Of a DNA stretch of 64,000 bases, positions 9-15,373 are shown one piece after another. Every line of letters begins with the position of its first letter. Position 1 is the stretch's first letter. The notes beneath the pieces were generated by a model, which worked only from the letters and a program-made list of their open reading frames with translations, was not told the origin of the DNA and ran no database searches. The translations under genes were made by a program, and so were the position numbers. The DNA comes from Aliiroseovarius salicola (GTDB taxonomy: Bacteria > Pseudomonadota > Alphaproteobacteria > Rhodobacterales > Rhodobacteraceae): contig NZ_JAQIIO010000004.1 in assembly GCF_027891095.1 (NCBI RefSeq), positions 1 through 64,000 on the forward strand, written 5' to 3'.

Positions 9-767
9 TCATTGCCCGGTCTCCGTTTCATTTGTGTTTACGAGTGCGGCCAAGGCGTCTTTGATTATAACGGCAGTGGCGCTTGCGATCATGTGTTGTT
101 GCAGTTGGTTGCCAATCAGATCGTTTCGGTACTCGAGCATGACATTTGGCCAATCCTTTGGAATCGCGTGGTGCTTCAAGGTGTGGGTTACTCCGTCTTC
201 CGGTCCGTAGGGGGCGTTTCTGCGAGTGTCCAACGCTGTGTGTTGACCTGCGCAATCCAGCATTTTGTCCGCCAGGCGGGTGTCCCTGTCATGAAGGATA
301 CCCAATTGCACCGCGCGGGGTTTGCCGTGGAAGGTCGATGTGAAGCTGTGCAATGTCACCAGCACACCCGAGACGCGCTGGTCCATGAGGGCCGATAGGG
401 CGGTCTCAAACGGGCGATACACTGTGTCGACGCGTTCCTGACGCGCCTCAGGAGTGAGATTCCGGTTGCCCGGCACCTCATAAATTTCCGAAACCTCGCG
501 AATAGCCGCTTCCGAGGAGGGAGGCCGATTGCAGTCATAGACCAGCCGCGACACGGTCGATGCGACCAGTGGTGCATCAAGGAGCTCTGACAGTTTTCGT
601 GCGAGACCAAAAGCCCCCGGATCCCAGGCCGCATGGCTGACCGCTGCTTCTTCCGACAGTCCCAACCCGCCATAGCGGGCCGGAATATGGTTCGAGGCAT
701 GTTCGCAGACAAGGACAACTGGCGAGGTACCCTTGTCGTTAAAAACCATGACAGACGTGTCATCCAT
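9..767 (-). CDS. N-formylglutamate amidohydrolase-like protein
   Basis: A 252-aa protein that resembles the N-formylglutamate amidohydrolase (HutG-like) family, which hydrolyses an N-formyl amino acid to formate and the free amino acid. The early segment VVLVCEHASNHIP and the later LVTLHSFTSTFHG match metal-binding blocks expected of the family. I chose the ATG at 767 because the stop of the upstream dehydrogenase shares one base with it (TGATG), which signals translational coupling; an upstream in-frame ATG at 824 lies inside the dehydrogenase gene. It is the last visible gene of a six-gene minus-strand operon that begins with a betaine-type binding protein. The real substrate is unknown. 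An N-formyl intermediate produced from an N-methyl group by the neighbouring dehydrogenase is an inference. Confidence 0.8.
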   Translation of the reverse strand: MDDTSVMVFNDKGTSPVVLVCEHASNHIPARYGGLGLSEEAAVSHAAWDPGAFGLARKLSELLDAPLVASTVSRLVYDCNRPPSSEAAIREVSEIYEVPGNRNLTPEARQERVDTVYRPFETALSALMDQRVSGVLVTLHSFTSTFHGKPRAVQLGILHDRDTRLADKMLDCAGQHTALDTRRNAPYGPEDGVTHTLKHHAIPKDWPNVMLEYRNDLIGNQLQQHMIASATAVIIKDALAALVNTNETETGQ

Positions 768-3211
768 CAGACTTTCACCCGTTCCATCTTGGGATCGAAG
801 AGCGGAGCAAGTGTAACGTTGCATGGTACACGGATTGTGGCGACCTCAAGCTCATATTCTCCGCTCAGGACATAGTCACGGTCCACCCCGTCATCGCAGC
901 GAACGTAACCCATGGCGATGGATTTTCCGATCGCGTGACCGTAGCCCGCCGAGCTGACATAGCCGACTCGTTCACCATTGCGATAGATCGTCTCTCGGCC
1001 CGACAGGATGACGTCGCCATCGGTGGTAAAGGTGGCCAGCATCTTCTTCATGCCGGTCTGGCGCTGTTCGGCAACGGCTTCGCGTCCCTTGAAGGGGATG
1101 TTCTTTTTCATCTTCACGGCCCAGCCCAGACCGGCTTCGTCCGGCGTGTGGTCCGTGCCGATGTCCGACGGCCACGCACGATAGCCTTTTTCAAGCCGCA
1201 TGGTTTCAATCGCGCGGTAGCCCGCGTTGGTCAATCCATGCTCGGCCCCTGCCTTATGCAGGGCATCATAGACGGTGGTGGCATATTCGACCGGGAGGTG
1301 CAGCTCCCAGCCAAGCTCACCGACATAGGTGACGCGCAATGCGTTGACCGGGCAGCCCGCGATGCCAATGGTCTTGGCGGTGCCAAACGGGAACCCCTCG
1401 TTTGACACGTCATCGCGCGTGACCTTCTCAAGGATTTTGCGAGCATTTGGCCCCATTAGCGATAGCACCGCATAAGAAGAGGTCACGTCAAACAGCTGCG
1501 CATTCATGTCGGCTGGGATGTTCTTGGAAATCCAGTCGAAGTCATGCGTGGCATAGCCGGTGCCGGTGACGATGTAATACTCATCTTCAGCGACGCGCAC
1601 ACAGGTCAGGTCACATTCGATCCCCGCATTGTCGTTGAGCATCTGAGTGTAGACCAGCGAGCCCACCGGCTTGGCCACATCATTGGCCGCAATCCAGCTG
1701 AGAGCGGCCTCGGCATCCGGGCCTTTCAGGGCAAACTTGGCAAAGCTGGTTTGGTCAAACAGCACCGCCGCTTCGCGACCTGCATTGTGTTCGCGGCCGA
1801 CGGGGATGTGCCAGTTGGGGCGTTCAAACGTGAAGATGTCACGCTGTTCTTCGCCATTTGCCGTGTCCGCGTACCAGTTGGGCCGTTCCCAGCCAAGTTT
1901 CTCTCCGAACACGGCACCATCCGCCTGAAGCGTGTCGTAAAGCGGTGATTTGCGGCAGGGACGGCCACTGTCATGTTCTTCCGAGGGCCAGGCCATGGTG
2001 TAGTGTTTGCCATAGGCTTCGATCGTGCGGGTGCGGATCCAGTCGTCGTCAAAGTGCGGGCGACCAAAGCGGCGGATGTCGACCGGCCAAAGATCGAAGG
2101 GCGGCTCACCCTTGGCAACCCATTCCGCCAGCGCCATCCCGGCGCCACCGCCGGCTGCGATGCCATAGGCATTGAAGCCAGCACCAACAAAGAAGTTCTT
2201 CAGCTCGGGCGCCTCCCCCAGGATGAAATTCCCATCCGGTGTGAAGCTTTCGGGGCCGTTCACCAGCTCTTTGACCCCGGCATTTTCCAGCGCAGGGACG
2301 CGTCCCAGAGAGAGCTCCATCAGCTGTTCAAAGTGGTCAAAGTTACTGTCAAGCAGCGTGTAGTGGAACCCTTGCGGAATGCCGGATGTGGCCCAGGGGA
2401 TCGGGTTTGGCTCATAGCCCCCCATCACCAGACCTCCGACCTCTTCCTTGTAGTAGGTCAAGCGATCAGGGTCGCGCAGTGTCGGTAGGTTCGATGGCAC
2501 GCCCTCGATTTGCTCGGTCACCATGTACTGGTGCTCCATCGGCACCAGCGGGACATTCACCCCAACTGACTTGGCAAAAGTGCGAGTCCACTGGCCACAA
2601 CAGGCGATCACGATGGGCGTGTTGATACGGCCTTTTTCAGTCTCGACCCCTTTGATGACGCCCTTTTCGATATCAACCGAAGTGACCTTGGTGTCTTCGA
2701 AAATCCGGGCCCCTGCCATGCGGGCCCCCTTGGCAAGCGCCTGTGTGATGTCAGAGGGGTTGGCCTGACCGTCGGTAGGCAGATAGGCTGCACCGATCAC
2801 ATCGTCGATGGTCATGAGCGGCCACAGTTCCTGCGCCTCTTTCGGGGTCAAGAGCTGCATGTCCAGCCCGAAGGAATGCGCGGTGGTGGCTTGTCGCTTG
2901 ACCTCAGTCCAGCGTTCTTCGTTACAGGCCAGGCGCAATCCGCCGTTCATCTTCCAGCCGGTTCCCAGCCCGGTTTCCTCCTCCAAGGTGTTGTAGAGAT
3001 CCACCGAGTACCCAAGCAGCTGAGTGATGTTGGCGTTTGAACGCAGCTGCCCGACCAGGCCAGCCGCATGGAAAGTTGTGCCCGAGGTTAATTTCTTGCG
3101 TTCAACAAGAACAACGTCCCACCCCAATTTGGCCAGATGATAGGCCGTCGAGCAGCCAACGATTCCGCCGCCTACGATGACGGCCTGTGCGGTTTTGGGA
3201 AAGTCGCTCAT
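767..3211 (-). CDS. FAD-dependent dehydrogenase fused to GcvT domain (dimethylglycine/sarcosine dehydrogenase-like)
   Basis: An 814-aa oxidoreductase. The N-terminal half is a DAO-type FAD domain with a dinucleotide fold (GGGIVG at residues 14-19) and a TTFHAAG motif whose His48 corresponds to the covalently flavinylated histidine of dimethylglycine and sarcosine dehydrogenases. The C-terminal half is a GcvT/aminomethyltransferase fold, which in the family passes the released methyl carbon to tetrahydrofolate. The ATG at 3211 has a good Shine-Dalgarno sequence (AGAGGAA) and overlaps the kinase stop by four bases (ATGA); the frame is open 81 codons further upstream inside the kinase gene, which is a shadow. 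The substrate is probably a secondary or tertiary N-methyl amine. Sequence alone does not separate dimethylglycine from sarcosine or another N-methyl compound. Confidence 0.9.
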   Translation of the reverse strand: MSDFPKTAQAVIVGGGIVGCSTAYHLAKLGWDVVLVERKKLTSGTTFHAAGLVGQLRSNANITQLLGYSVDLYNTLEEETGLGTGWKMNGGLRLACNEERWTEVKRQATTAHSFGLDMQLLTPKEAQELWPLMTIDDVIGAAYLPTDGQANPSDITQALAKGARMAGARIFEDTKVTSVDIEKGVIKGVETEKGRINTPIVIACCGQWTRTFAKSVGVNVPLVPMEHQYMVTEQIEGVPSNLPTLRDPDRLTYYKEEVGGLVMGGYEPNPIPWATSGIPQGFHYTLLDSNFDHFEQLMELSLGRVPALENAGVKELVNGPESFTPDGNFILGEAPELKNFFVGAGFNAYGIAAGGGAGMALAEWVAKGEPPFDLWPVDIRRFGRPHFDDDWIRTRTIEAYGKHYTMAWPSEEHDSGRPCRKSPLYDTLQADGAVFGEKLGWERPNWYADTANGEEQRDIFTFERPNWHIPVGREHNAGREAAVLFDQTSFAKFALKGPDAEAALSWIAANDVAKPVGSLVYTQMLNDNAGIECDLTCVRVAEDEYYIVTGTGYATHDFDWISKNIPADMNAQLFDVTSSYAVLSLMGPNARKILEKVTRDDVSNEGFPFGTAKTIGIAGCPVNALRVTYVGELGWELHLPVEYATTVYDALHKAGAEHGLTNAGYRAIETMRLEKGYRAWPSDIGTDHTPDEAGLGWAVKMKKNIPFKGREAVAEQRQTGMKKMLATFTTDGDVILSGRETIYRNGERVGYVSSAGYGHAIGKSIAMGYVRCDDGVDRDYVLSGEYELEVATIRVPCNVTLAPLFDPKMERVKV

Positions 3212-4107
3212 GATGTTCCTCTTTGGGATTGATAGTCGGAAAGGGCCTGCTGGTAGCGGGCAAGGTTGTCTGCCGTGTAGGCGGCATAGTCGAAGTCGAT
3301 CTCCGAAGTGATTTCGGACACCATGCTCCACATGGTTTCGCGCAGCAGCGAGGCGCATTTCATGGCGCCATAGCTCTGCATCAACGCAGCATCTGGCGGG
3401 GTGCCAAAATAGGTCTGCAGCATCAGGTGTTCGGCTTCGGAGGGAAGCTCGCAATTGGTGGCGAGCCCACCCAGATCGAACAGCGGGGAATTAAACCCGC
3501 CATACTCCCAGTCGATCAGCCAGAACTGCTCGCTTCCGCGCAGGATGTTGGCGGGCAGCAAGTCATTGTGGCCCAGCACCAGTTGCACTGGTCCCACCGC
3601 CTGTTCTAGCGCGTCTGCGTCCTTCATAAGGGCATCCAATGCCCCGATATGTGACGATCCGTTTTGGCGCAGAAAGGCAGCGTAGTCGCGCAACACGTGG
3701 AAAACCCAGAAGGTCAGGACAGGCCCACGCACCGCAGGGGTCACTTCCTGGTGTGTCCGGTGGATCAGTCTCGTTACCTTTTGCAAGGTGTCGGCGTCAT
3801 GCAGGTCGGTGGCCTCCAATGCCGGGGCCTCGACGAAATCTAGAACCAGGATGCCGGGCTCAGCATAATGCACTGCCGGGGCAATGCCGACCGAAGCCGC
3901 TGCTTGCGAGATTGCCAATTCGTTGAACCGCTTAACGCCGTGTTCAGGAATGTCTTCGCCAAAGCGAACGACATAAGCTTGCTCTCCATCTGTCACCTTG
4001 AGGTTGATGTTGGTGATGCCGCCACCCAGCTGTTCGATGCTGGGCTGCGCGCCACTCCAACATGGTAAGGCGCGTGCATACGCCATGGCTTTTTCGAGAG
4101 AGGACAT
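3208..4107 (-). CDS. choline/ethanolamine-kinase-like phosphotransferase
   Basis: A 299-aa small-molecule kinase of the choline kinase/aminoglycoside phosphotransferase fold. Visible landmarks are the nucleotide loop LGGGITNINL (27-36), Brenner's motif HNDLLPANIL (180-189) with the catalytic Asp182, and the metal-binding IDWEYGG (198-204). The ATG at 4107 overlaps the permease stop as TGATG; a GTG at 4110 is one codon earlier and possible. It sits between an importer and a methylamine-type dehydrogenase in one operon, so it probably phosphorylates the imported compound or an intermediate at a hydroxyl group. A paralogue sits next to a second such dehydrogenase at 10050-10979. Choline itself as the substrate is not established. 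Confidence 0.85.
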   Translation of the reverse strand: MSSLEKAMAYARALPCWSGAQPSIEQLGGGITNINLKVTDGEQAYVVRFGEDIPEHGVKRFNELAISQAAASVGIAPAVHYAEPGILVLDFVEAPALEATDLHDADTLQKVTRLIHRTHQEVTPAVRGPVLTFWVFHVLRDYAAFLRQNGSSHIGALDALMKDADALEQAVGPVQLVLGHNDLLPANILRGSEQFWLIDWEYGGFNSPLFDLGGLATNCELPSEAEHLMLQTYFGTPPDAALMQSYGAMKCASLLRETMWSMVSEITSEIDFDYAAYTADNLARYQQALSDYQSQRGTS

Positions 4108-6110
4108 CACTTCACCCCCAGTTTTTCTTGTGAATTGCGGGCCAGGGCGGCGACGATGCGGTCGGCGATGATGGCGATAAAGGCAACCGAGAGACCGGCA
4201 ATGATGCCTTGCCCGGTGTTGGCCTTGGTCAGAGCGATATAGACTTCTTGCCCAAGATCACGCGTGCCGACCAAGGCGGTGATCACCAGCATCGACAGCG
4301 CCAGCATGATGGTCTGGTTTAGACCCAGCAGCAGCGATGGCGCGGCCAGCGGCAGTTTGATGCGCAGCAGGATCTGGCGCTCGGTGCAGCCAGACACCTT
4401 GCCAGCCTCAATCAGCTCCTGGTCAATCGAGCGGATGCCATGGGCGGCGTAGCGGACGGCGGGTGCGAGAGCATAGAGGACCACCGCGATCATGGCCGAG
4501 AAGTCGCCGACCCGGAACAGCATGACAACCGGGATCAGGTAGACGAAACTCGGAAGAGTTTGCAGCGTGTCGATCATCGCACCGATGACGCTGTTGGCCC
4601 GGTTGCTTTGGCCAGCCCAAATCCCAAGGGGAATGCCGATGGCGCTGGCAATTAGAACCGAAACCGACACAAGGTAGACGGTGATCATCGCTTTGGCCCA
4701 GAGGCCATTGGCCGCAATGAAGAGGGTCATTGCTGCCGACATCAGGCCGAACTTCCATCCCCCGACACGTCCAGCTGCCAAGCCCACGACGATCACACCC
4801 CAAGCCCAGGGAATACCCGAGAAGAAGCGCTTTACCGGCAGTAGCAGAGTGGTCAGGAAGAAGGTTTTGATCGCCTCGAAGAAATCGAAGAATGTGACGT
4901 TGATCCACTCCATCATCGCGGTCCAAATGGACCCGGTGGTGATGGTTAGACTTTCCGGAAGCAGGCGAAAGCCCGGGAGGTAGATGCCCAGCAATGTGCT
5001 GATCACGATCAGAGCGACACTGGTGCTGATCAGCGGGTGGCGTTGGTAGATTGGTTGCGCAGGATCCGGGCGCGGGCGAACGCGACGAATGGCGAAGGCC
5101 TGGCTGACACGGTCGAGCGCGATGGCCATGACAACAATCGCCAGCCCAGCCTCAATCCCACCGCCAATGTCCAGACGGCGCAGCGACGTGAGAACATCAT
5201 AGCCTAGCCCGCCCGCACCGATCATCGAAGCGATGATCACCATATTCAGGGTCAGCATGATGACCTGATTGACACCCACCATCAGCGAGGGCAGCGCGGT
5301 GGGGACCATGACTTTCCACATCTGCTGATGGGGTTTGCAGCCAACCATGCGCCCTGCTTCCTTGACCTCCTCAGGGACCGATTGCAACGCGACGGTGGCA
5401 ATGCGCACCATCGGCGGCATGGCGTAGATCACCGTGGCCACAAGCGCCGAGACAGGACCGAAACCGAACAGGAACAGAATGGGCACCAGATAAGCAAAGA
5501 CCGGAACCGTCTGCATGAGATCGAGGATCGGGCGCAGTGCTTTCTCCACCCATGGGTGACGATAAGACAAGATGCCCAACAAAAGCCCGCCGGTCACGCC
5601 AATCGGCACTGCGATTAGCACGGATGCCAGCGTGACCATGGCACTTTCCCACTGTCCGAATATGGCGAGATAGGCGAAACACAGGGCAGCCAGCATGGCC
5701 AGTCCGGCATTGCGGGCATAAAGCGCAATCACTGCCATGGTGCCAATGATGGCGATCCAGCTGATCGACGGGGCTACCTCGATGGCTTGTTGACCCTGTC
5801 CAACCGAGAACCCGTCAATCAGAAGAGAGCGCACGAATTGATAGGGCAGCTCGATCACGGCGGCGATGAACCGCGTAAGGTCGCGGAACGTGAAAAGCCC
5901 GAAATGAGCGTCTTCGACCAGCCAGGTCATTGCGCTGGAAATCCAGCTGTCCAGAGGCAGTTCATATTTCTTGGGAAAGCGAACGATCCAACGCGCATCC
6001 AGCGCCTTGTAAATCGCAAATGAGAACTGGGACAGCCCCCATGTGATTGCGAAGAGCCCAAGCCAGAACATACGCGGGCCTCGCAAACAGGATTTCAGAA
6101 AGCTGCTCAT
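4107..6110 (-). CDS. betaine-type ABC transporter, double permease
   Basis: A 667-aa inner-membrane protein that contains two complete ProW/OpuAB-like permease domains in tandem, against about 280-350 aa for a usual single permease. Each half carries an EAA loop: EVKEAGRMVGC in the first and ELIEAGKVSGC in the second, each followed by a conserved proline-serine-leucine stretch. Each half also has its own extra N-terminal membrane segments. The start overlaps the ATPase stop by four bases (ATGA). One chain would supply both halves of the transmembrane channel for the ATPase encoded upstream. The cognate binding protein (7275-8216) suggests a quaternary ammonium or related compatible solute. 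Confidence 0.9.
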   Translation of the reverse strand: MSSFLKSCLRGPRMFWLGLFAITWGLSQFSFAIYKALDARWIVRFPKKYELPLDSWISSAMTWLVEDAHFGLFTFRDLTRFIAAVIELPYQFVRSLLIDGFSVGQGQQAIEVAPSISWIAIIGTMAVIALYARNAGLAMLAALCFAYLAIFGQWESAMVTLASVLIAVPIGVTGGLLLGILSYRHPWVEKALRPILDLMQTVPVFAYLVPILFLFGFGPVSALVATVIYAMPPMVRIATVALQSVPEEVKEAGRMVGCKPHQQMWKVMVPTALPSLMVGVNQVIMLTLNMVIIASMIGAGGLGYDVLTSLRRLDIGGGIEAGLAIVVMAIALDRVSQAFAIRRVRPRPDPAQPIYQRHPLISTSVALIVISTLLGIYLPGFRLLPESLTITTGSIWTAMMEWINVTFFDFFEAIKTFFLTTLLLPVKRFFSGIPWAWGVIVVGLAAGRVGGWKFGLMSAAMTLFIAANGLWAKAMITVYLVSVSVLIASAIGIPLGIWAGQSNRANSVIGAMIDTLQTLPSFVYLIPVVMLFRVGDFSAMIAVVLYALAPAVRYAAHGIRSIDQELIEAGKVSGCTERQILLRIKLPLAAPSLLLGLNQTIMLALSMLVITALVGTRDLGQEVYIALTKANTGQGIIAGLSVAFIAIIADRIVAALARNSQEKLGVK

Positions 6111-7135
6111 GCTGCTGTACGTCCGATCATGATGTCAACGGCTGCGCGCGCATCTATGGTGCCCACAGGTTTGCCATCTTCGTCGAGAACGCGGAAGGGC
6201 AGGTCGGCCTCATCCAGTTGGTGAACCGTATCGGCCACGGCCAGATGCCCGTCCAGGTCGCCTGCGTATTCGCCCTCGGGCACGCCCTTTGACATGATGG
6301 AGCTAAGCTTGATCACCTTGGCGCGCGGAATGTGGCGGGTGAATTCCTCGACATATGGTGTGGCCGGATTGAGCACCAGGTTCTCCGGCGTGTCGATCTG
6401 TTCGATACAGCCGTCCTTCATCACCGCGATGCGGTCTGCCAAGCGAATGGCTTCGTCGAAATCATGGGTGATGAAGACGATGGTTTTGTGCAGCATGGAC
6501 TGCAAGCGCAGGAATTCATCCTGCATTTCGCGCCGGATCAAAGGGTCAAGCGCGGAAAACGGTTCATCAAGGAACCACAGATCGGGATCAGCCACTAGAG
6601 AGCGGGCAATGCCGACGCGCTGCTGCTGGCCGCCGGAAAGCTGGCGCGGATAATGGTCTTCGCGCCCTTTCAGGCCAACGGTTTCGATCATTTGACGTGC
6701 TCGGTCTTCGCGTTCGTTTTGGGACACGCCCTGAACTTCCAGGGGAAAAGCGGCGTTCTGCAAAACCGTCAGATGAGGAAGAAGCGCAAAATGCTGGAAT
6801 ACCATGCCCATCTTCTTGCGGCGCACATCGATCAGCTCTGCATTGCTCATCTTCAGCAGGTCACGGCCTTCGAAATTGATCTCGCCTGCGGTGGATTCCA
6901 CCAGTCGTGACAGACAGCGCACAAGCGTTGATTTACCTGATCCGGACAGTCCCATGATCACGAAAATCTCGCCTTGAAAGACCTGTACATTGGCGTCGCG
7001 CACGGCACCCACCACATGAGAGGCCTCGAAATCTTTTGAAGTGGGCGCACCGTTGTGTTTCTTCAGAAAGGTCTCGGGGTGAGCGCCGAAGATCTTCCAG
7101 ACACCACGGCATTCCAGCTTGACTGAACGCTCCAT
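6107..7135 (-). CDS. betaine-type ABC transporter ATP-binding protein
   Basis: A 342-aa ATPase of the ProV/OpuAA type. Walker A is GLSGSGKST (62-70), the signature is LSGGQQQRV, and Walker B is LWFLDEPFSALD. The N-terminus carries the ProV-style extension before the P-loop (KIFGAHPETFLKKHNG). The C-terminus (about 275-342) looks like a CBS-type regulatory region, ending in GKPVGTIDARAAVDIMIG. I chose ATG 7135, which has a GAGG Shine-Dalgarno sequence; an ATG 23 codons upstream lies in the hairpin-containing leader and has no such support. It is second in the importer operon, 139 bases after the binding-protein gene. Confidence 0.93.
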   Translation of the reverse strand: MERSVKLECRGVWKIFGAHPETFLKKHNGAPTSKDFEASHVVGAVRDANVQVFQGEIFVIMGLSGSGKSTLVRCLSRLVESTAGEINFEGRDLLKMSNAELIDVRRKKMGMVFQHFALLPHLTVLQNAAFPLEVQGVSQNEREDRARQMIETVGLKGREDHYPRQLSGGQQQRVGIARSLVADPDLWFLDEPFSALDPLIRREMQDEFLRLQSMLHKTIVFITHDFDEAIRLADRIAVMKDGCIEQIDTPENLVLNPATPYVEEFTRHIPRAKVIKLSSIMSKGVPEGEYAGDLDGHLAVADTVHQLDEADLPFRVLDEDGKPVGTIDARAAVDIMIGRTAA

Positions 7136-7228
7136 TGCTACCTCGGAATTGGGCTGGAACTGGCCCATGGGGGGGCCGTTCCTGCCGATAGGAAAGGGTA
7201 TCACTGGCGCTTGGGCCAGGATGGATAG

Positions 7229-7274: not shown

Positions 7275-8216
7275 TTACTTGATCCAGCTCGACCAAGCAG
7301 CTTCGTTGGCGGTCATCCATTCGGAGACAACGCTTTCGATCGAGACGCCTTCCAAATCGACCTTGCCCACAAGAGCCCCCATGGCGTCATTGTCGATATC
7401 AAAGGCCTTGATCGCGTCAGCTGCGCCCGGCCATTTGTCGGCAACACCCGACCATGCCACCTTCCAGATCGGACCGGTCGGCTTGCCGCAATCATAGGCC
7501 GCATCGGGGTTCATGCCGGCGGACGGATCGTTGTAGCACTCGACCGAATAGGGGGGGAATTCGACAAATTTGCCATCATATTTCGCGGTGGCCCAATGCG
7601 GTGAATAGATCCACAGCACAATTGGTGCCTCACGCTGATAGGCACTTTCGAGCTCCGCAAAAAGGGCCGCATCGGTGCCTGCATGAACCACTTCAAAGTC
7701 CATCCCAAGTGACTCAACGCGTTCATCATCAAAGCCACCCCAGGTGACGGGGCCGCCTAGGTAACGCCCCATGGGTGCCGTCTCAGGTGTCGAAAACTCC
7801 TGCGCACAATCATTCAGGGCTTTCCAGTCCGGCAGGCCGGGGCAGAGTTTTTCCATATAGGCCGGATACCACCATTCCTCGATGGCCTCCATGCCAGTGG
7901 GGCCCATATTGACCACCTTGCCGGTGCCGAACGCTTCGTCCATCGCCTCGCGGCCGGTGGTTTCCCAGATTTCCATTGCGATATGCAGGTCGCCTGATTT
8001 CAGGCCCGCGAACTGAGCGATATAGTCTGCCTGAACATACTCCACATTATAGCCGGCCTTTTTCAGGACTTCGCCCATAATGGTGGTTGTGATGATCTGT
8101 CCGGTCCAGTCGTGGGTGGTCAGTTTGATCGGATCAAGCGATTCAACTTCCGCCACGGCGCTGCTCGCCAACAGCGCGGTCATCAACGTGGCGGAATATG
8201 TTGTGAATTTCGTCAT
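7275..8216 (-). CDS. betaine-type ABC transporter substrate-binding protein
   Basis: A 313-aa periplasmic protein of the OpuAC/ProX family. A signal peptide (MTKFTTYSATLMTALLASSA, then VAE) precedes the mature domain. Tryptophans in HDWTGQ, EIWETT, EEWWYPAY and WIYSPHW could form the aromatic cage that binds quaternary ammonium or sulfonium groups. ATG 8216 has a strong GGGAGG ribosome site; the upstream open frame is non-coding promoter DNA. It is the first gene of the six-gene operon and is transcribed divergently from the DeoR regulator at 8427, with an operator array between them. Confidence 0.93.
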   Translation of the reverse strand: MTKFTTYSATLMTALLASSAVAEVESLDPIKLTTHDWTGQIITTTIMGEVLKKAGYNVEYVQADYIAQFAGLKSGDLHIAMEIWETTGREAMDEAFGTGKVVNMGPTGMEAIEEWWYPAYMEKLCPGLPDWKALNDCAQEFSTPETAPMGRYLGGPVTWGGFDDERVESLGMDFEVVHAGTDAALFAELESAYQREAPIVLWIYSPHWATAKYDGKFVEFPPYSVECYNDPSAGMNPDAAYDCGKPTGPIWKVAWSGVADKWPGAADAIKAFDIDNDAMGALVGKVDLEGVSIESVVSEWMTANEAAWSSWIK

Positions 8217-8312
8217 GGTCAGCCTCCCAGCTTTGTTTTTTGTGGGTTTTGCGTCTTCAGCGGTCTGAAAATGCGGAAACAAGGTGATGTTTCGGCATAA
8301 AGCGACAAAAAT

Positions 8313-8380
8313 CAACATATAAATTTGGAAAATGTTGTAAAATGATAAAATAATGTGGAAATATTGTGGGAATAATGGTG
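8313..8380. promoter_or_regulatory. phased half-site array between SBP operon and DeoR gene
   Basis: The AT-rich divergent promoter holds CAACA at 8313-8317, an inverted TGTTG at 8333-8337, and weaker copies TGTGG at 8354 and 8365 and TGGTG at 8376. Spacings are 20, 21, 11 and 11 bases, close to whole helical turns. A cleaner version of the same array occurs upstream of the second dehydrogenase (13455-13489). This is the likely DeoR operator; the binding protein is inferred. Confidence 0.55.
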
Positions 8381-8426
8381 GAATGCAGAGGGGGAGCGCC
8401 CTCATTTGTTGAATTGGAGTAGAATC

Positions 8427-9197
8427 ATGGAACCGCGTGCAAATCACAGACAGAAGGTGATCTTGGACGAGTTGCGCCGCTCTGGTGGATCAATGCGGAT
8501 CCACGCTTTGGCTCAGGCACTGGATGTGACAGAAGAAACCGTTCGTAGAAACCTCAAGTCACTTGCGGATGAAGGATTGGTTGATCGCATGCATGGTGGC
8601 GTGCGGATTGTAGAAAGCGACGCCGAAGCAGATTTCAATGCGCGATATCGGGACAATCCGGTCGCCAAACAGAAAATCGCCAGCCATGTGGCGCGCATGT
8701 TACCCAACGATGTGTCGCTGTTTCTCGATATCGGCAGCACGACGGCGCATATTGCCGACGCGCTGCGTGACCACCAGCGGCTGGTTGTGGTCACCAACTC
8801 TGTCTATGTCGCGTTCCGTTTGGCCACGCGCAATGGCAACCGTGTCTTTCTGGCAGGGGGGGAATTGCGTGGCCACGATGGTGGTGCTTTCGGGACCGAT
8901 GCAATGGAGTTTGTGGCGAACTTCAATACGGATTTTGCCGTTCTGTCTTCAGCGGGGATCACATCAAAGGGTTTTTTCCTTTTCGATCTGGAAGAGGCAC
9001 GCTTCTCGCGCTTGATCATGCAGCAGGCCGACACACGCATCATGGCCGCCGACTCCAGCAAGTTCGGAGGGGTGGCGCCCGTTGATATTGGACGGCCGTC
9101 ACAGGTGGACTATCTGATCTGCGATCGGGAGCCGCCGCAAGACATCGCCTCAGCCGCAATGGCTGATTGGGGCACCAAAATCCAAATCGCCAAATAG
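8427..9197 (+). CDS. DeoR-family transcriptional regulator
   Basis: A 256-aa repressor. An N-terminal DeoR helix-turn-helix (residues about 6-57, with the recognition stretch VTEETVRRNLKSL) is followed by a sugar-phosphate-isomerase-like effector domain that includes LFLDIGSTT and VVTNSVYVAFRLA. ATG 8427 follows a GGAG site; an ATG seven codons upstream is not supported. DeoR proteins typically sense phosphorylated metabolites, which fits the kinases encoded in the flanking operons. It is divergent from the importer operon and is followed eight bases later by a phosphatase-like gene, so it probably controls both. Confidence 0.9.
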   Translation: MEPRANHRQKVILDELRRSGGSMRIHALAQALDVTEETVRRNLKSLADEGLVDRMHGGVRIVESDAEADFNARYRDNPVAKQKIASHVARMLPNDVSLFLDIGSTTAHIADALRDHQRLVVVTNSVYVAFRLATRNGNRVFLAGGELRGHDGGAFGTDAMEFVANFNTDFAVLSSAGITSKGFFLFDLEEARFSRLIMQQADTRIMAADSSKFGGVAPVDIGRPSQVDYLICDREPPQDIASAAMADWGTKIQIAK

Positions 9198-9205
9198 GAG
9201 AGACC

Positions 9206-9982
9206 ATGACCAACGCGATCAATGAGGTCAGCGATGTGGCAAAGCGCATCGCAATGCAAGCAAGTGCAATACCGATGTCCCATTTTCGGGCCCCTCTCAA
9301 TATCACTGACAAGGCAGATGACAGCCCGGTCACGATTGCCGACCAGAAAACCGAAACCTTTATTCGCCATGCGCTTGAGTGCAGCTTTCCTGACCATGGG
9401 ATTTTCGGCGAGGAATACGGTATCTCTGGTTCGCTTGAGGGGGAAACCTGGATCGTCGACCCGATTGACGGTACGCGGTCTTTTATCACCGGGTCGCCGT
9501 TGTTTGGCATGTTAATGGGGTATTTGGTCGAAGGCGAGCCGCGTCTAGGGCTGGTCAGAATGCCCGCGCTGAACGAGACATATGTGGGCGTGCCAGGGGT
9601 GGGAGCATCCTGCAATGACCTACCGATCCGATGCCGCGAAACGCAGGCGCTTGATGATGCGCTGGTGTATATCAACGAGGCAGAGCGGATCCAGAAGATG
9701 AATCCTGCCTTATTTACCCGGCTCTGTACCATCGGACACACCCGCCGGATGGCCTATGACTGTTATCCTCATGCCTTGGTGGCGTCCGGGCAGATCGATG
9801 CGGTCATCGATTGCGGGCTGGAGCCTTACGACTACTTGCCCTTGGTTGGGTTGGTCCACGCTGCAGGCGGGATTATCACCGATTGGGGCGGCAATGCGCT
9901 GACGCTAGAAAGCGATGGGCGTGTGGTCACCGCCGCGACTCCAGAATTGCATGCACAGGTGCTTTCGGTCCTGAACGACTGA
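9206..9982 (+). CDS. inositol-monophosphatase-family phosphatase
   Basis: A 258-aa Mg-dependent phosphatase of the inositol monophosphatase/histidinol-phosphatase family. The metal site is visible as GEE (68-70) and the signature DPIDGTRSF (85-93). It is encoded directly downstream of the DeoR gene with an AGGAGAG ribosome site, so the two form an operon. A phosphatase beside two small-molecule kinases suggests it removes the phosphate these add or acts on a later phospho-intermediate; this is inference. It differs from the SuhB-type paralogue at 40101-40886. Confidence 0.85.
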   Translation: MTNAINEVSDVAKRIAMQASAIPMSHFRAPLNITDKADDSPVTIADQKTETFIRHALECSFPDHGIFGEEYGISGSLEGETWIVDPIDGTRSFITGSPLFGMLMGYLVEGEPRLGLVRMPALNETYVGVPGVGASCNDLPIRCRETQALDDALVYINEAERIQKMNPALFTRLCTIGHTRRMAYDCYPHALVASGQIDAVIDCGLEPYDYLPLVGLVHAAGGIITDWGGNALTLESDGRVVTAATPELHAQVLSVLND

Positions 9983-10000
9983 GTGATATGGAAACACAAA

Positions 10001-10032
10001 AAAAGGGCCGGAGCGTTTGCTCCGGCCCTTTT
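10001..10032. terminator. bidirectional Rho-independent terminator
   Basis: A perfect 14-bp inverted repeat (10001-10014 and 10019-10032) around a GTTT loop, with A and T runs on the two sides. It separates the convergent phosphatase and kinase genes and can end transcripts from both strands. Confidence 0.92.
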
Positions 10033-10049
10033 CGTTTGTTTGTGCGGTA

Positions 10050-10979: not shown

Positions 10980-10988
10980 GTCGCCTCC

Positions 10989-13412
10989 TCACGACTTGAG
11001 TTTTTCATTCTGCGGATCAAATAGGGGGCCGTCGACCCTTTTGATTGGATGACGGTCCCCAAAGACTTCAACCTCGAAGCCGTCTTCGCAGCTGATGTCG
11101 GTGTCCAGATAACCAAAGATGATCGTCTGGCCGACCGAGTGGCCAAAGCCTGCACTTGTGGCTAGTGACACGGTTTCCCCGTTGCGCAGGATTGTTTCAC
11201 CACCGTAGAGCGGCAGTTTGACCGGCGTGGTGAAGGTGCAAAGTTTTTGCGCAGGCCCCTCGGTTTTTTGCTGTTCCAGCACGTCGCGACCAATGAAATC
11301 ACCACCGACCTTCAGGTGGACACGGAACCCAAGCCCCGCTTCGATTGGCGTATAGTCGGGAGAGATGTCACCTGACCAGTAGAGGTACCCTTTCTCAAGT
11401 CGCAACGTGTCGATGGCGCGATAACCGACGTCGCGAATATCATGCGGTTCGCCTGCAGCGCGCAGGGTTTGATAGACATGGGCGGCAAACTCTGTTGGGA
11501 CATGCAGTTCCCAGCCCAGTTCGCCGACAAAGCCGATCCGCGCCGCCCGTACCGGGGCGCAGCCGATGGTGATGTTTTGGGCGGTGCCAAAGGGGAAAGC
11601 GGCGTTTGACACGTCCTGCTCGCAGATGGTCTGCAGCACGTCCCGTGCCTTGGGTCCACAAATGTTGACCACGGCGCGCCCAGAAGTGACCTCGATCATT
11701 TGAATGGAGCCGTCCTTGGGCATCTGGCGGCGAATGTAATCTTCGTCATGGGTGCCAAACCCGGACCCTGTGACCAGATAGAAATGATCACGCGCCAGAC
11801 GGGTGATCGTTACATCGGCCTCTATTCCACCGGTTTCGTTGCAGAATTGTGCGTAGATCACCGTGCCATCAGGCTTGTCCATATTGCAGGCGGCCAGACG
11901 CTGGAGCAGGTCCAGCGCACCGGGGCCCATGATTTCGAACTTGGCAAAGCTGGACTGGTCGATCAGCGCAACGCCTTCACGCACGGCCTTATGTTCCTCG
12001 GCGGCATATTTATGCCAGCCTGGTTCAAGGAAATCGAGCTGGTCCACCGGCTCCACCCCTTCGGGGGCGAACCACAGGGGGCGCTCCCAGCCGTTTTTCG
12101 ATCCGTAAACAGCGCCGCGGTGCTTGAGCAGCCCATGCAGCGGCGACAGGCGGATGTTGCGGGCGCTTTCATGTTCCTGCCCGGGGTAACGCATCTTGTA
12201 ATGGTGGGCATAATGTTCCACAGCGCGGGGATACATGAAGCTCTTGGTGCCGTGATGCGGACCGAAACGGCGGCAATCAAGCGGCCAGAGATCCAGGCTT
12301 GGCCGTCCCTCGGTAATCCATTCAGCGATCATTTCTCCGGCACCACCACCGGCCGCAATCCCATACAGGAAGCCGGTAGCCATCATCAGGTTGTCAAAGC
12401 CGGGGGCCCAGCCCAGCACAAAATCCCCGTCTGCCGAATAGGGGATCGGGCCATTGATGACCGATCGGATGCCCACCTCGTTCAGCACCGGAGTCACCTC
12501 GGCGGCCAGTTCGGCCAGCGGTCCAAAACGATCGAGATTGTCTGGCAGAAGTTGGCGCACGAATTCGCCGGGGATGCCGTTGTCACCAAAAGGCAGGGTG
12601 CCTTCTTCGTAGCCACCAATCACCAGCCGCCCGCCTGCATCTGGTTTGTAGTAAACAAGGCGCTCGGGGTCTCGCAGGGTTGGCAGGCCTTTGACCAGTG
12701 CTTCGTCTGGAAGCGGTTCGGTCACAATATATTGGTGCTCAACAGCACAGGCAGGCACATGAATGCCCAGCTTTTCACCCAGTTCACGGCTCCACATCCC
12801 AGCAGCCATAACAATGGTCTCGGCCTCATAGTCGCCTTCGCTGGTCATCACCTTGGTGATGCGACCGTCCTTGATTTCGAAATCCAGAACTTTGACGCCT
12901 TGTCGGATCTGCGCGCCATATTTGCGTGCGCCCGCCGCAACAGCCTGGCACAGGCTGGCCGGGTCCACATGCCCGTCAGAGGGAATAAAGGCCGCGCCTT
13001 CCAGCCCGGAGGTGTCAATATATGGAAACAGCTCCTTGGCTTCGGCAGCTGTGATCATTTCCATTTCAAGATCAAAGCTCTTTGCCATGGTGGTTAGACG
13101 CTGGGCCTCAAGCAGGCGTTCCTTGGTGGCAGCCAGGCGCAAGCTGCCAACCTTTTTCCAGTCAAACGCCATGCCGGTTTCTTGTTCAAGCCGGTCATAC
13201 ATCGCCACCGAGCGTTTCAGCATGCGGGTGGTGTTACGCGATGAACGCAGCTGTCCAACAAGGCCGGCGGCATGCCAGGTGGCGCCTTCGGTCAGCGAGG
13301 CTTTCTCCAAAAGCACGACCTCTTTCTCACCATTGCGCGCAAGGTGATAGGCCGTAGAGCAACCGATGATACCTCCGCCAATGATGAGGTGTTTTGCAGA
13401 ATGTGTGGTCAT
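10989..13412 (-). CDS. FAD-dependent dehydrogenase fused to GcvT domain (second copy)
   Basis: An 807-aa paralogue of the dehydrogenase at 767-3211 with the same two-part build: dinucleotide motif GGGIIG (12-17), a WHAAG motif with His47 at the flavinylation position, and a C-terminal GcvT half ending in a beta-rich region. It should oxidise an N-methyl amine and hand the carbon to tetrahydrofolate. ATG 13412 follows an AGGATCC site. It leads a two-gene operon with the kinase at 10050-10979 and is divergent from an AraC-type regulator, with a strong phased operator array between them. Confidence 0.9.
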   Translation of the reverse strand: MTTHSAKHLIIGGGIIGCSTAYHLARNGEKEVVLLEKASLTEGATWHAAGLVGQLRSSRNTTRMLKRSVAMYDRLEQETGMAFDWKKVGSLRLAATKERLLEAQRLTTMAKSFDLEMEMITAAEAKELFPYIDTSGLEGAAFIPSDGHVDPASLCQAVAAGARKYGAQIRQGVKVLDFEIKDGRITKVMTSEGDYEAETIVMAAGMWSRELGEKLGIHVPACAVEHQYIVTEPLPDEALVKGLPTLRDPERLVYYKPDAGGRLVIGGYEEGTLPFGDNGIPGEFVRQLLPDNLDRFGPLAELAAEVTPVLNEVGIRSVINGPIPYSADGDFVLGWAPGFDNLMMATGFLYGIAAGGGAGEMIAEWITEGRPSLDLWPLDCRRFGPHHGTKSFMYPRAVEHYAHHYKMRYPGQEHESARNIRLSPLHGLLKHRGAVYGSKNGWERPLWFAPEGVEPVDQLDFLEPGWHKYAAEEHKAVREGVALIDQSSFAKFEIMGPGALDLLQRLAACNMDKPDGTVIYAQFCNETGGIEADVTITRLARDHFYLVTGSGFGTHDEDYIRRQMPKDGSIQMIEVTSGRAVVNICGPKARDVLQTICEQDVSNAAFPFGTAQNITIGCAPVRAARIGFVGELGWELHVPTEFAAHVYQTLRAAGEPHDIRDVGYRAIDTLRLEKGYLYWSGDISPDYTPIEAGLGFRVHLKVGGDFIGRDVLEQQKTEGPAQKLCTFTTPVKLPLYGGETILRNGETVSLATSAGFGHSVGQTIIFGYLDTDISCEDGFEVEVFGDRHPIKRVDGPLFDPQNEKLKS

Positions 13413-13450
13413 GTTCGGATCCTACCTGATGTCGGGAATAAATTGACACA

Positions 13451-13490
13451 AAAACAACAAAAAACAACAAAAAATGTTGAAAAATGTTGC
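13451..13490. promoter_or_regulatory. four half-site operator array, 10-bp period
   Basis: Two identical 10-mers containing CAACA (13455-13459, 13465-13469) are followed by two near-identical 10-mers containing the reverse complement TGTTG (13475-13479, 13485-13489). All four centres are exactly 10 bp apart, giving a symmetric array on one DNA face. A partial fifth copy (GACACA) lies at 13445. It sits 39-78 bp upstream of the dehydrogenase start and matches the array at 8313-8380. Confidence 0.7.
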
Positions 13491-13583
13491 AGCGGGGCCG
13501 AAATTGGGCCAAATTGCACGGAAAACCGCGGTTTTTCAGCTTCGATCCTGCCCGGATCACTGATGGATTACAGGAGTTATCAG

Positions 13584-14567
13584 ATGCAGCAACCTGCTCA
13601 TAACGCGTTTAGAATGGCGACATTCGCTGCGACGCCTGAGGTTCAAGAGGTGGTGATTCTTCTTAGTGAAGGTGCTGCGATGGCGGATTGCAGCGCAATC
13701 ACGCAGCCCCTGAAAAGCGTCAATGACATCGTAGGCACTCAGCTCTTTCGCTGGCGGTTCCTGACCCTGAACGAGGGTGTTCAGAAGCTATCATGCGGTT
13801 CTGAGCTTGCCAGCGAAGCGCAAAACGGCCCTTTGCATCGGGACACATTGGTGTTTCTCAATTGGGACAGGCCATCGGAGCAGGAATCCGGCCGCTTGGC
13901 CCAGTGGTTGCGTCGACAAGACCGGTGCGGGAACAAATTTGTGCTTTTGGGGAGTTCAGTTTTGACTGCCATTGAGGCTGGTATCCTAAATGACATTCCA
14001 GTTGCAGTGCATTGGGAGTGGATTGATTTCGTCAGGGAGTTGTACCCCGAGGTGCGGGCTGTAGATCAGCTCTACTCCGTGTCCCCAAGGGTTTCCGCCA
14101 GCACATGTAGCGACGCCACCATCGATCTGGTAATCGGATTCATCGAAGCACAACATGGCACCAGCTTCGCGCGCAAGGTTCAAGAACGATTAAACCGCCC
14201 GTACCGGCGTCTTCCAAACACTTCGCAGAGCATTCCGCTGTCACGGAAATACGGCACTCGGAATCCGACTTTCCTTGCGGTGGTTGAGCGGATTCAGAAC
14301 TGCTTTGATGAGAACCTATCCGTAGAGGAGCTTTGTCAGGAGTTTGATATTTCGAGGAGGCAGCTGGAGAGGCTGTTTGCAGATCGTGCCGGAACCTCTC
14401 CGTTGAAGTTCATAAAAGATTATCGGTTGGGAAAGGCGCAGCAATTGCTCCAGGTTACGGATATGAGCGTGATCGAAGTGGCAATCGCCTGTGGCTTTCC
14501 GACAGATGCCTGCTTTCGTGCGGCGTTCAAACGAAAGTTTGGAATGACCCCATCAAAGTTTGTCTGA
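13584..14567 (+). CDS. AraC-family (GlxA/CdhR-like) transcriptional regulator
   Basis: A 327-aa regulator with an N-terminal DJ-1/PfpI-like domain (about 1-200) and a C-terminal double helix-turn-helix AraC domain (about 230-327), including LSVEELCQEFDISRRQLERL and a terminal RAAFKRKFGMTPSKF block. I chose ATG 13584, which follows an AGGAG site by eight bases; an ATG seven codons upstream is weaker, and the longer open frame is antisense to the dehydrogenase. The family includes activators of glycine betaine, carnitine and arginine catabolism, which fits the neighbouring methylamine-type dehydrogenase. Its effector is unknown. Confidence 0.87.
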   Translation: MQQPAHNAFRMATFAATPEVQEVVILLSEGAAMADCSAITQPLKSVNDIVGTQLFRWRFLTLNEGVQKLSCGSELASEAQNGPLHRDTLVFLNWDRPSEQESGRLAQWLRRQDRCGNKFVLLGSSVLTAIEAGILNDIPVAVHWEWIDFVRELYPEVRAVDQLYSVSPRVSASTCSDATIDLVIGFIEAQHGTSFARKVQERLNRPYRRLPNTSQSIPLSRKYGTRNPTFLAVVERIQNCFDENLSVEELCQEFDISRRQLERLFADRAGTSPLKFIKDYRLGKAQQLLQVTDMSVIEVAIACGFPTDACFRAAFKRKFGMTPSKFV

Positions 14568-14614: not shown

Positions 14615-15373
14615 ATGGCGAAGTATGATCAAGAGATTTTAAATGCAGTCGGATTGCGCGGCACACTGAGTGTTGTTGAATTGTCTGAAATGCTAGGTGT
14701 TTCGGACCAAACAATTCGACGCATCGTCAAACCGTTGGTGGATGCGGGATTGATCAAAAAAGTGCATGGTGCAATCGTAAGTGTCGACAACCCGACGACA
14801 GAACCTTTTCAAGTCCGATTGCAGCACAATCGCGAAGCCAAGGCTCAAATTGCTTCGAAGATTGCCGAGTTGATCCCCGACGGGGCATCGGTAGCGATCG
14901 ACGCAGGATCCAGCGCGGGATTTGTCGCCAAAGCGTTGCAGATAAGGAAAAACCTTACAGTCGTCACCAACTCGGCATTTGTCGCCAGTACCCTGTCTTT
15001 AAAGAAAGGGAACAAGGTTTTTTTTGCGGGGACGCAACTGCGAGACTACGATGGTGCTTCTTATGATCGAACGGCGTTCAACACCGTGGAATCGTTGCGT
15101 GTTGATTACTGCGTTCTGACCGCTTCACTCGTCCATCACAAGCGCGGTTTTCTAATGGCTGAACAAAGTGAAGCGGATATGGCGAAAGCAATGACAAGTA
15201 TTGCTGAGCAGACAATCTTTGCCGTGGATCACTCCAAATTGGTTAAGAATGGCACGCAAGGGCTGTTGTCAATTGGTGAGCTGAGACCACAGCCGTGGAT
15301 GATCACAGATGAGATCTCCCGGGGGGCTGGTGGTGATTTTGATGACATTGCCAATGTAATAGTGGTGTCTTGA
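14615..15373 (+). CDS. DeoR-family transcriptional regulator (second copy)
   Basis: A 252-aa DeoR protein with an N-terminal winged helix (LSVVELSEMLGVSDQTIRRI, then VKPLVDAGLIKKVHGA) and a sensor domain with VAIDAGSSAGFVAKAL and VVTNSAFVASTLSL. It starts 47 bases after the AraC gene and is probably co-transcribed with it. The ribosome site is weak (GGAA). With the DeoR gene at 8427 it gives the region two paralogous regulators. Either could bind the CAACA/TGTTG arrays. Confidence 0.87.
   Translation: MAKYDQEILNAVGLRGTLSVVELSEMLGVSDQTIRRIVKPLVDAGLIKKVHGAIVSVDNPTTEPFQVRLQHNREAKAQIASKIAELIPDGASVAIDAGSSAGFVAKALQIRKNLTVVTNSAFVASTLSLKKGNKVFFAGTQLRDYDGASYDRTAFNTVESLRVDYCVLTASLVHHKRGFLMAEQSEADMAKAMTSIAEQTIFAVDHSKLVKNGTQGLLSIGELRPQPWMITDEISRGAGGDFDDIANVIVVS

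What the first reader, a model, noticed from the sequence alone, without database searches (positions are those of the whole stretch)
9..15373. Twin kinase/GcvT-dehydrogenase modules with DeoR control: possible undescribed catabolic pathway
Two paralogous pairs, each a choline-kinase-like phosphotransferase next to a flavinylated FAD/GcvT dehydrogenase, flank a DeoR-phosphatase pair. One pair sits in an operon with a betaine-type importer and an N-formylglutamate-amidohydrolase-like gene. DeoR proteins usually sense phosphorylated compounds, so a phosphorylated, N-methylated intermediate is a coherent reading: import, phosphorylation, demethylation to folate, deformylation. I do not know a described pathway with this set.
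Basis: partly seen in the sequence, partly recalled or inferred. Interest (0 to 1): 0.85.

Follow-up and report, generated by a model that had tools for sequence, protein, structure and literature searches.

The report
Kinase-gated breakdown of methylated ethanolamines
A conserved and apparently undescribed set of bacterial genes looks built to import small methylated amino alcohols, tag them with phosphate, strip off their methyl groups and feed the resulting ethanolamine into a known breakdown route.

Summary
The window has two choline/ethanolamine-kinase-like genes (K1, K2), each beside a DMGDH-type FAD/GcvT dehydrogenase (DH1, DH2), around a DeoR-phosphatase pair, with a TmoX-like importer upstream of K1. 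The set is conserved: of 295 family genomes 58 have K1 and 35 have K2, and all 35 have K1. In 80 named loci K1 precedes DH1 in 64 and follows the importer permease in 44.

The main correction concerns the N-formylglutamate-amidohydrolase-like gene. In relatives it belongs to the published ethanolamine gamma-glutamylation route, where this family hydrolyses gamma-glutamylglycine. In the nearest named relative the K1 operon continues with that route's other three genes, and the route's importer is replaced by ABC-K1-DH1. A homologue of the ethanolamine ligase is in 55 of 58 K1 genomes against 132 of 237 others.

Best reading: N-methylated ethanolamines are imported, O-phosphorylated, N-demethylated to folate, dephosphorylated to ethanolamine, then gamma-glutamylated to glycine and glutamate. 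Substrate and step order are inferred. The window's own host lacks a close ligase. Six paper searches aimed at such a pathway found no description.

The parts
9..767 (-). NFGA-like amidohydrolase (frame open from 824; ATG at 767 overlaps the DH1 stop), probable gamma-glutamylglycine hydrolase
   Evidence: Pfam FGase 134 bits; L137 has NFGA-GS-ALDH-FeADH in a row; family assigned this role in PMC6529630 and PMC10132767; start
767..3211 (-). DH1, FAD/GcvT (DMGDH-type) dehydrogenase, 814 aa
   Evidence: Pfam DAO, FAO_M, GCV_T, GCV_T_C; human DMGDH E 2.4e-156; DH1 rows group together; ATGA overlap with K1
3208..4110 (-). K1, choline/ethanolamine-kinase-like; Glu258 probably where choline kinases have the first box Trp (start GTG 4110 or ATG 4107)
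4107..6110 (-). ABC permease, two fused domains
   Evidence: Pfam BPD_transp_1, 2 stretches; NCBIfam choline ABC permease TIGR03416 427 bits in two stretches, cut-off 363
6107..7204 (-). ABC ATPase, ProV-like
   Evidence: NCBIfam TIGR01186 338.3 bits, cut-off 326.6
7275..8219 (-). SBP, TmoX-like substrate-binding protein with altered cage
   Evidence: 4xz6 E 4.9e-75; cage residues in 86 sequences
8313..8337 (.). probable operator half-sites CAACA / TGTTG between SBP and DeoR1, 20 bp apart
8406..9197 (+). DeoR1 regulator
   Evidence: DeoRC and HTH_DeoR
9167..9982 (+). IMP, inositol-monophosphatase-family phosphatase
   Evidence: PF00459 169.7 bits
10050..10979 (-). K2, choline/ethanolamine-kinase-like with both box Trp; relative of 3dxq
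10989..13412 (-). DH2, FAD/GcvT (DMGDH-type) dehydrogenase
13455..13489 (.). probable operator: CAACA, CAACA, TGTTG, TGTTG at exact 10-bp steps
13272..14567 (+). AraC-type regulator (frame overlaps the start of DH2; real start probably about 13570, by eye)
   Evidence: HTH_18
14615..15373 (+). DeoR2, the regulator found beside DH2-K2 in several relatives

Best explanation
It is a catabolic module for N-methylated ethanolamines, most likely dimethyl- and/or monomethylethanolamine. Proposed steps: (1) the SBP/ABC system imports the amine; (2) K1, and K2 where present, phosphorylate the hydroxyl; (3) DH1 and DH2 oxidise N-methyl groups of the phospho-compound and pass each carbon to tetrahydrofolate, with electrons probably going to ETF; (4) the inositol-monophosphatase-family enzyme removes phosphate to give ethanolamine; (5) ethanolamine enters the known gamma-glutamylation route to glutamate and glycine, whose last enzyme is the NFGA-like protein. 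DeoR proteins repress both modules until a phosphorylated intermediate appears. Shown here: gene content, conservation, linkage, predicted folds, conserved pocket residues, shared operator-like repeats. Inferred: the substrate, the order of steps, the regulators' effector and the flow of electrons. K2 keeps the choline-type Trp pair and K1 seems to have Glu instead of one Trp, so my guess is that K2 takes the more methylated and K1 the less methylated amine.
For: Linkage: in Cognatishimia maritima (L137) the operon runs SBP-ATPase-PERM-K1-DH1-NFGA-GS-ALDH-FeADH; Litoreibacter halocynthiae (L192) has all four ethanolamine genes beside the module; Salipiger abyssi (L039) has them after K1-DH1, ETF, FolD and PurU, with GlyA next and serine ammonia-lyase upstream. 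Published order: a separate cluster (L223, in a genome that has K1 elsewhere) has RpiR, NFGA, TRAP small, large and binding parts, GS, ALDH, FeADH, the order of the ethanolamine operon in PMC10132767; its NFGA/GS/ALDH/FeADH are 51/70/84/86% identical to those of L137. Co-occurrence: ligase homologue in 55 of 58 K1 genomes vs 132 of 237 others, Fisher p 1.2e-9; K2 only in K1 genomes, 35 of 35. Fold: the 50 PDB rows shown for the K1 model are all choline/ethanolamine kinases. SBP pocket, 86 sequences: W85, E114 and W160 in 86, W38, W203 and Y205 in 84, and Gly at TmoX F106 in 82, which may leave room for a larger ligand than TMAO. Operator: six-base words repeated at 10 bp upstream of SBP in 21 of 81 (4.7 expected) and of DH2 in 15 of 43 (3.5 expected), but in 4 of 129 (8.0 expected) upstream of ATPase-labelled genes.
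Against: Direct linkage to the ethanolamine genes is a minority: at strict identity 7 of 80 named loci have at least one and 2 of 80 have two or more; 1 of 51 K1 stretches in the family set. The window's host has no close ligase (best 33% identity); it keeps the last 100 residues of the ALDH and a full FeADH on another contig. K1 is not always beside DH1 (64 of 80; 46 of 51), and the phosphatase is within reach in only 26 of 80 and 15 of 51. In two genomes (G206, G280) K1 lies apart from the ABC-DH1 cluster. In Salipiger-type loci the pair lies in a TMA/methylamine cluster. All loci were picked by K1 or K2, so the counts do not say how often DH1 or DH2 occur alone. No enzyme has been assayed. 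The p values ignore relatedness.
Confidence: 0.55

Rival explanations
1. The module serves another N-methylated alcohol, for example an N-methyl amino-acid alcohol or a homoserine/carnitine-type betaine; the ethanolamine genes are neighbours by common regulation or common nitrogen metabolism.
For: Linkage to ethanolamine genes is seen in a minority of loci; substrate identity rests on context; K2 has a weak homoserine-kinase match, E 2.7e-4, 20 bits, cut-off 271.
Against: Both kinases resemble choline/ethanolamine kinases most among solved structures; a ligase homologue is in 55 of 58 K1 genomes; in L137 the four genes follow DH1 on the same strand.
Confidence: 0.22
2. It is part of trimethylamine / TMAO / methylamine breakdown: the importer takes TMAO or a relative and K1-DH1 act on a methylamine intermediate.
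For: SBP is closest to TmoX among solved structures. Some loci (L148, L149, L153, L155, L082) have a Tmm gene (815 bits, cut-off 675, tested in L149), a Tdm-like gene, K1-DH1, then genes that I take, from recall, for N-methylglutamate synthase (amidotransferase, FwdC-like and glutamate-synthase-like matches). A Tdm-like gene (1073.9 bits, cut-off 1100) lies near DH2-K2 in S. abyssi.
Against: The published TMAO-contact residues F106, F220 and W222 (PMC8918994) are Gly, Trp and Tyr here (mapped by eye on the alignment). Methylamines have no hydroxyl for a choline-type kinase. The Tdm-like label is in 5 of 80 named loci and the Tmm cluster in 5 of 80.
Confidence: 0.1
3. The kinases salvage (methyl)ethanolamine or choline for phospholipid synthesis, and the dehydrogenases are ordinary dimethylglycine/sarcosine enzymes that happen to be adjacent.
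For: K1 has the choline/ethanolamine kinase fold and K2 is close to 3dxq and LicA; DH1 resembles DMGDH.
Against: K1 and DH1 overlap by four bases in the window (ATGA) and are adjacent in 64 of 80 loci; DH1 and DH2 each group apart from five other host copies; a phosphatase and catabolic genes are linked in part of the loci.
Confidence: 0.13

Closest known systems
Ethanolamine gamma-glutamylation operon (RpiR-GGAH-EtoVWX-ETAGA-GAADDH-GETADH; Phaeobacter MED193, PMC10132767; GlnA4 route, PMC6529630)
   Same: NFGA, GS, ALDH and FeADH of the longest K1 operons are homologues of a cluster with that gene order.
   Different: The TRAP ethanolamine importer is replaced by an OpuAC-type ABC importer, a choline-type kinase and a folate-domain dehydrogenase; DeoR instead of RpiR beside the importer.
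Dimethylglycine dehydrogenase (DMGDH)
   Same: Same four-domain FAD/GcvT architecture and the HAAG motif with its His, the FAD-linking one by recall.
   Different: Separate DH1 and DH2 groups, found here beside kinases (the loci were picked by kinase); expected substrate is an amino-alcohol phosphate.
Choline/ethanolamine kinase (LicA 4r77, M. loti 3dxq, ChoK alpha)
   Same: Fold and catalytic motif.
   Different: K1 has an invariant Glu258 (136 of 136 sequences), probably in place of the first box Trp; role looks catabolic.
TMAO importer TmoXVW / DMSP importer DmpXWV
   Same: Same SBP family; for TmoX most of the aromatic box and the Glu are kept.
   Different: TmoX F106/F220/W222 are changed (PMC8918994). 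DmpX was compared only by listed positions (PMC10030565).
Phosphobase methylation pathway of plants and worms (recalled)
   Same: Same proposed intermediates: phosphoethanolamine and its N-methyl forms.
   Different: Would run in the reverse, oxidative direction with folate instead of SAM.

Membership tests
Choline/ethanolamine kinase | Pfam PF01633 above curated cut-off (29 bits) | tested here: met
   K1 75.9, K2 57.5 bits
Choline/ethanolamine kinase | catalytic H-x-D-x4-N and downstream Asp (motif by recall) | tested here: met
   K1 H181, D183, N188 in 136 of 136, D200 in 135 of 136; K2 H185, D187, N192, D204 in 64 of 64
Choline/ethanolamine kinase | two Trp of the choline box (Trp420, Trp423 in ChoK alpha1, PMC4814829) | tested here: inconclusive
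   K2 W262 and W265 in 64 of 64. K1 keeps W261 and has E258 for the other in the alignments with 3dxq and K2 and in a weak segment with human ChoK (5.5 bits); the alignment with LicA sets W261 on the first Trp instead
Choline/ethanolamine kinase | phosphorylates choline or an ethanolamine | not testable with these tools
   no assay
GntI pre-guanitoxin N-oxide kinase | NCBIfam NF041256 cut-off 357 bits | tested here: not met
   K1 143.9, K2 144.0 bits, though it is the best NCBIfam match of both
Thiamine kinase | NCBIfam TIGR02721 cut-off 299.45 bits | tested here: not met
   K1 65.6, K2 44.9 bits
DMGDH-type FAD/GcvT dehydrogenase | DAO + FAO_M + GCV_T + GCV_T_C in one chain | tested here: met
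   DH1 and DH2
DMGDH-type FAD/GcvT dehydrogenase | oxidises dimethylglycine or sarcosine | not testable with these tools
   no assay
Ethanolamine gamma-glutamylation route | NFGA-family hydrolase, ligase, ALDH and Fe-ADH in the genome | tested here: not met
   window host: NFGA, an ALDH remnant and FeADH, no close ligase; all four present in relatives L137 and L192
TmoX (TMAO) binding protein | W55, W102, F106, E131, W177, F220, W222 | tested here: not met
   W38, W85, G89, E114, W160, W203, Y205, mapped by eye on the printed alignment
Choline-binding protein ChoX | NCBIfam TIGR03414 cut-off 379 bits | tested here: not met
   38.5 bits
DmpX (DMSP) binding protein | T64, A153, Y200, W202 among pocket residues | tested here: inconclusive
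   G161, W203, Y205 at what look like the matching places, but no alignment with DmpX was made

The most novel reading that the evidence does not exclude
Phosphate serves as a temporary handle: bacteria convert methylated ethanolamines to phospho-esters so that dimethylglycine-dehydrogenase-type enzymes can demethylate them, running the phosphobase methylation pathway backwards (phospho-dimethyl- to phospho-monomethyl- to phosphoethanolamine) before releasing ethanolamine. This would be a new catabolic logic and a new carbon, nitrogen and one-carbon source for marine alphaproteobacteria.
Probability: 0.38. Interest if true: 0.78.

Novelty: new variant of a known kind. Interest (0 to 1): 0.62.

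Why it matters
Methylated ethanolamines are head groups of membrane lipids and intermediates of choline metabolism (recalled), yet six paper searches aimed at such a pathway found no bacterial route of this kind. If the reading is true, a group of genes annotated as 'phosphotransferase' plus 'FAD-dependent oxidoreductase' gains a testable function that joins lipid head-group recycling to one-carbon and nitrogen metabolism. It also gives a simple, assayable idea: phosphorylation as a handle for N-demethylation.

Tried and rejected
Deformylation by the NFGA-like protein: rejected because the gene sits with the ethanolamine gamma-glutamylation genes in relatives and the family is assigned gamma-glutamylglycine hydrolysis there. 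NFGA as a core member: rejected; labelled in 4 places over 148 loci. Homarine, an early idea from memory: the paper search gave nothing. TMAO import: see rivals. N-oxide kinase (GntI): far below the cut-off. A general search for further conserved neighbours gave no other common partner; the most frequent unlabelled cluster was in 11 of 148 loci. Upstream FeADH regions show no repeat at period 10 (0 of 11). A check of whether predicted models could be measured in the Python box found no coordinates there, so pocket geometry was not examined.

Searches of print: ten; six of them were aimed at this pathway. Searches asked for several terms at once and returned no paper at all; others listed 4, 6 and 1 papers, none on the subject by title and abstract start. 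The library holds open-licence papers only, so absence is weak evidence. Papers: passages only were seen of PMC10132767 (with its outline), PMC8918994, PMC6529630, PMC10030565 and PMC4814829; all others were seen as search listings.

Thresholds: K1 at E 1e-60 or better, K2 at 1e-100 or better and ligase at 1e-60 or better were set after seeing the score gaps. Dropping eight weak ligase genomes gives 54 of 58 vs 125 of 237, p 1.1e-9. G242 has a partial K2 match (2.8e-31) and was counted as lacking K2. The 58 include the window's genome. The named set and the family set overlap: some stretches are the same contig fetched twice (for example L084 and L148, L131 and L203), so pooled counts hold duplicates; one search dropped near-identical rows. 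Shuffles are first-order Markov samples; its ATPase-labelled control holds other ABC ATPases too and shows excesses at periods 6, 9, 12 and 15, as coding sequence does, but not at 10. In some searches DH1 was given with one extra residue before its Met (767-3214).


Full report
What is there. The window is the first 64 kb of contig C27 of a 3.58-Mb genome. On the minus strand, from 8219 down to base 9, lie SBP, ATPase, double permease, K1, DH1 and an NFGA-family gene. The stop of the ATPase gene overlaps the start of the permease, the stop of K1 overlaps the start of DH1 (ATGA in both), and an ATG for NFGA overlaps the stop of DH1, so this looks like a tightly coupled operon. Divergent to it are DeoR1 and an inositol-monophosphatase-family gene. 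DH2 and K2 follow on the minus strand, then an AraC-type regulator and DeoR2 on the plus strand. K1/K2 are 26% identical and DH1/DH2 46%. In a tree of 37 sampled sequences DH1 (20 rows) and DH2 (12 rows) each fall on one side of a branch (support 96/96 and 99/98), apart from five other GcvT dehydrogenases of the host; the host has 16 GCV_T matches in all. That tree has long branches among the host copies, so the relation of DH1 to DH2 is open.

Conservation. Among 295 genomes of the same family, drawn evenly and including the window's, 58 have K1 at E 1e-60 or better and 35 have K2 at 1e-100 or better. All 35 lie within the 58 (Fisher p 2.7e-30). By their titles most of the 80 are alphaproteobacteria, with a few gammaproteobacterial, SAR324 and deltaproteobacterial bins and one bin titled Mesoflavibacter. 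In these 80 loci K1 is followed by DH1 in 64 and by DH2 in 3, preceded by the permease in 44, and has a DeoR gene in 48, the phosphatase in 26 and K2 in 28. Several loci are cut by contig ends, so these are lower bounds. Of 60 stretches from family genomes, 51 hold K1, with DH1 adjacent in 46 and the permease in 34. In two genomes (G206, G280) K1 lies apart from the ABC-DH1 cluster. In Rhizobium rosettiformans the parts stand in one row: ABC-K1-DH1-DH2-K2. The loci were picked by K1 or K2, so they do not show how often the dehydrogenases occur alone.

The ethanolamine link. In Cognatishimia maritima, whose DH1 is 94% identical to the window's, the operon goes on after NFGA with a glutamine-synthetase-like ligase, an aldehyde dehydrogenase and an iron alcohol dehydrogenase (L137). 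A separate cluster in a genome that has K1 elsewhere (L223, G200) has RpiR, NFGA, three TRAP components, ligase, ALDH and FeADH. That is the order of the ethanolamine operon of Phaeobacter MED193 given in PMC10132767. NFGA, ligase, ALDH and FeADH of the two clusters are 51, 70, 84 and 86% identical. PMC6529630 proposes the same steps and gives the last one, gamma-glutamylglycine to glycine and glutamate, to a formylglutamate amidohydrolase family member. So in C. maritima the ethanolamine importer is replaced by an ABC importer, a kinase and a folate-domain dehydrogenase. Litoreibacter halocynthiae has the same four genes beside the module. Salipiger abyssi adds ETF subunits, FolD, PurU, GlyA and serine ammonia-lyase, which fits methyl carbon on folate plus glycine as product. 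Over the 295 genomes a ligase homologue is in 55 of 58 with K1 and 132 of 237 without (p 1.2e-9).

Limits of that link. Direct neighbourhood is the exception. With strict identity, 7 of 80 named loci have at least one of the four genes and 2 of 80 have two or more; in the family set 1 of 51. Two further named loci (L164, L204) have the ligase-ALDH-FeADH row at lower identity. If the chance of such a row within 10 kb is 0.5% per locus, four of 80 has probability 7e-4; at 1% it is 9e-3 (both rates are my estimates). The window's own genome has no close ligase: the best is 33% identical. It has the last 100 residues of the ALDH and a full FeADH (81%) on contig C32. There they follow a Na/Pi-symporter-like gene, a second phosphatase (52% to IMP), a second DeoR (39% to DeoR1) and a PehA-like ester hydrolase (454 bits, cut-off 900). 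Whether the missing part is a real loss or an assembly gap cannot be told.

Kinases and importer. AlphaFold models of K1 and K2 are confident (mean pLDDT 95.8 and 93.6). The 50 best PDB rows shown for the K1 model, of 327 with E <= 0.001, are all choline or ethanolamine kinases. In human ChoK the choline site includes Trp420 and Trp423 (PMC4814829). K2 has such a pair (W262, W265, 64 of 64 sequences); K1 has E258 and W261 (136 of 136). The pairing E258-W262 comes from a joint alignment and a profile-profile alignment, from the alignment with 3dxq and from helices in register with a constant shift of four. The alignment of the K1 profile with LicA sets W261 on the first Trp instead, so this is probable, not settled. 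The SBP is closest to TmoX among solved structures. Of the TMAO contacts (PMC8918994) the three Trp W55, W102, W177 and Glu131 are kept, but F106 is Gly in 82 of 86, and F220 and W222 are Trp and Tyr in 84 of 86 (positions mapped by eye on the alignment). No alignment with DmpX was made.

Regulation. Upstream of SBP-labelled and DH2-labelled genes, six-base words repeated at a 10-bp distance are in excess (21 of 81 vs 4.7 expected; 15 of 43 vs 3.5). Of the distances 6 to 15, only 10 stands out in both sets. Sequence upstream of ATPase-labelled genes, mostly inside the operon, shows no excess at 10 (4 of 129 vs 8.0) but does at multiples of three, as coding sequence would. The half-site is CAACA / TGTTG. 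In the window four stand at exact 10-bp steps at 13455-13489, upstream of DH2, and two 20 bp apart at 8313-8337. Five overlapping triplets of half-sites within 35 bp occur in the whole window against 0.58 expected (maximum 5 in 50 shuffles); two of the five are this site and three lie near 61.5-62.2 kb. The same repeat type at both modules suggests one regulon.

How it most likely works. A methylated ethanolamine is bound in an aromatic cage with one Glu, imported, and phosphorylated. The phosphate gives the small amine a negative group like the carboxylate of dimethylglycine, which a DMGDH-type enzyme may need; this is inference. DH1 and DH2 remove methyl groups to folate, the phosphatase frees ethanolamine, and the gamma-glutamyl route finishes the job. 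That K2 was not found without K1 in these 295 genomes fits K2-DH2 as an added entry for a more methylated substrate. Nothing here was assayed.

Verdict. The pathway looks undescribed within the searched library, but its parts belong to known families, so I file it as a new variant of a known kind.

Noticed in passing
L219 (G000 C32) 4957-11426: In the window's own genome a PehA-like ester hydrolase, a second DeoR, a second IMP-type phosphatase and a Na/Pi-symporter-like gene stand before a 100-residue ALDH remnant and an intact FeADH, as if a second phospho-ester module had replaced the ethanolamine ligase and most of the ALDH.
   Followed up: partly
L148 (same contig as L084), L149, L153, L155, L082: K1-DH1 stand between Tmm- and Tdm-like genes and genes that look like N-methylglutamate synthase (by recall), with a P450 and a GMC oxidoreductase nearby: a combined methylamine island.
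   Followed up: partly
L097 1514-10609 and L103: K1-DH1 follow a molybdopterin oxidoreductase set, with a sulfoacetaldehyde acetyltransferase (Xsc, 926 bits, cut-off 676) further upstream; L103 seems to have an Xsc gene near K1 too, by the look of its start only. Meaning unknown.
   Followed up: partly
L046 5397-7763 and L167 3413-4462: A Tdm-like gene (1073.9 bits in L046, just under the NCBIfam cut-off of 1100) near DH2-K2, and a match to it near DeoR1-SBP in L167; a possible N-oxide demethylase partner.
   Followed up: no
L094, L161, L163, L210: A gene of one cluster (F20), sulfatase-like by eye, recurs near K1 in four loci.
   Followed up: no
L046 1330-5372: A second TmoX-like importer (SBP 44% identical to the window's) beside the Tdm-like gene.
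   Followed up: no
window 61519-62180: Two more small clusters of CAACA/TGTTG half-sites, not at regular 10-bp steps.
   Followed up: no
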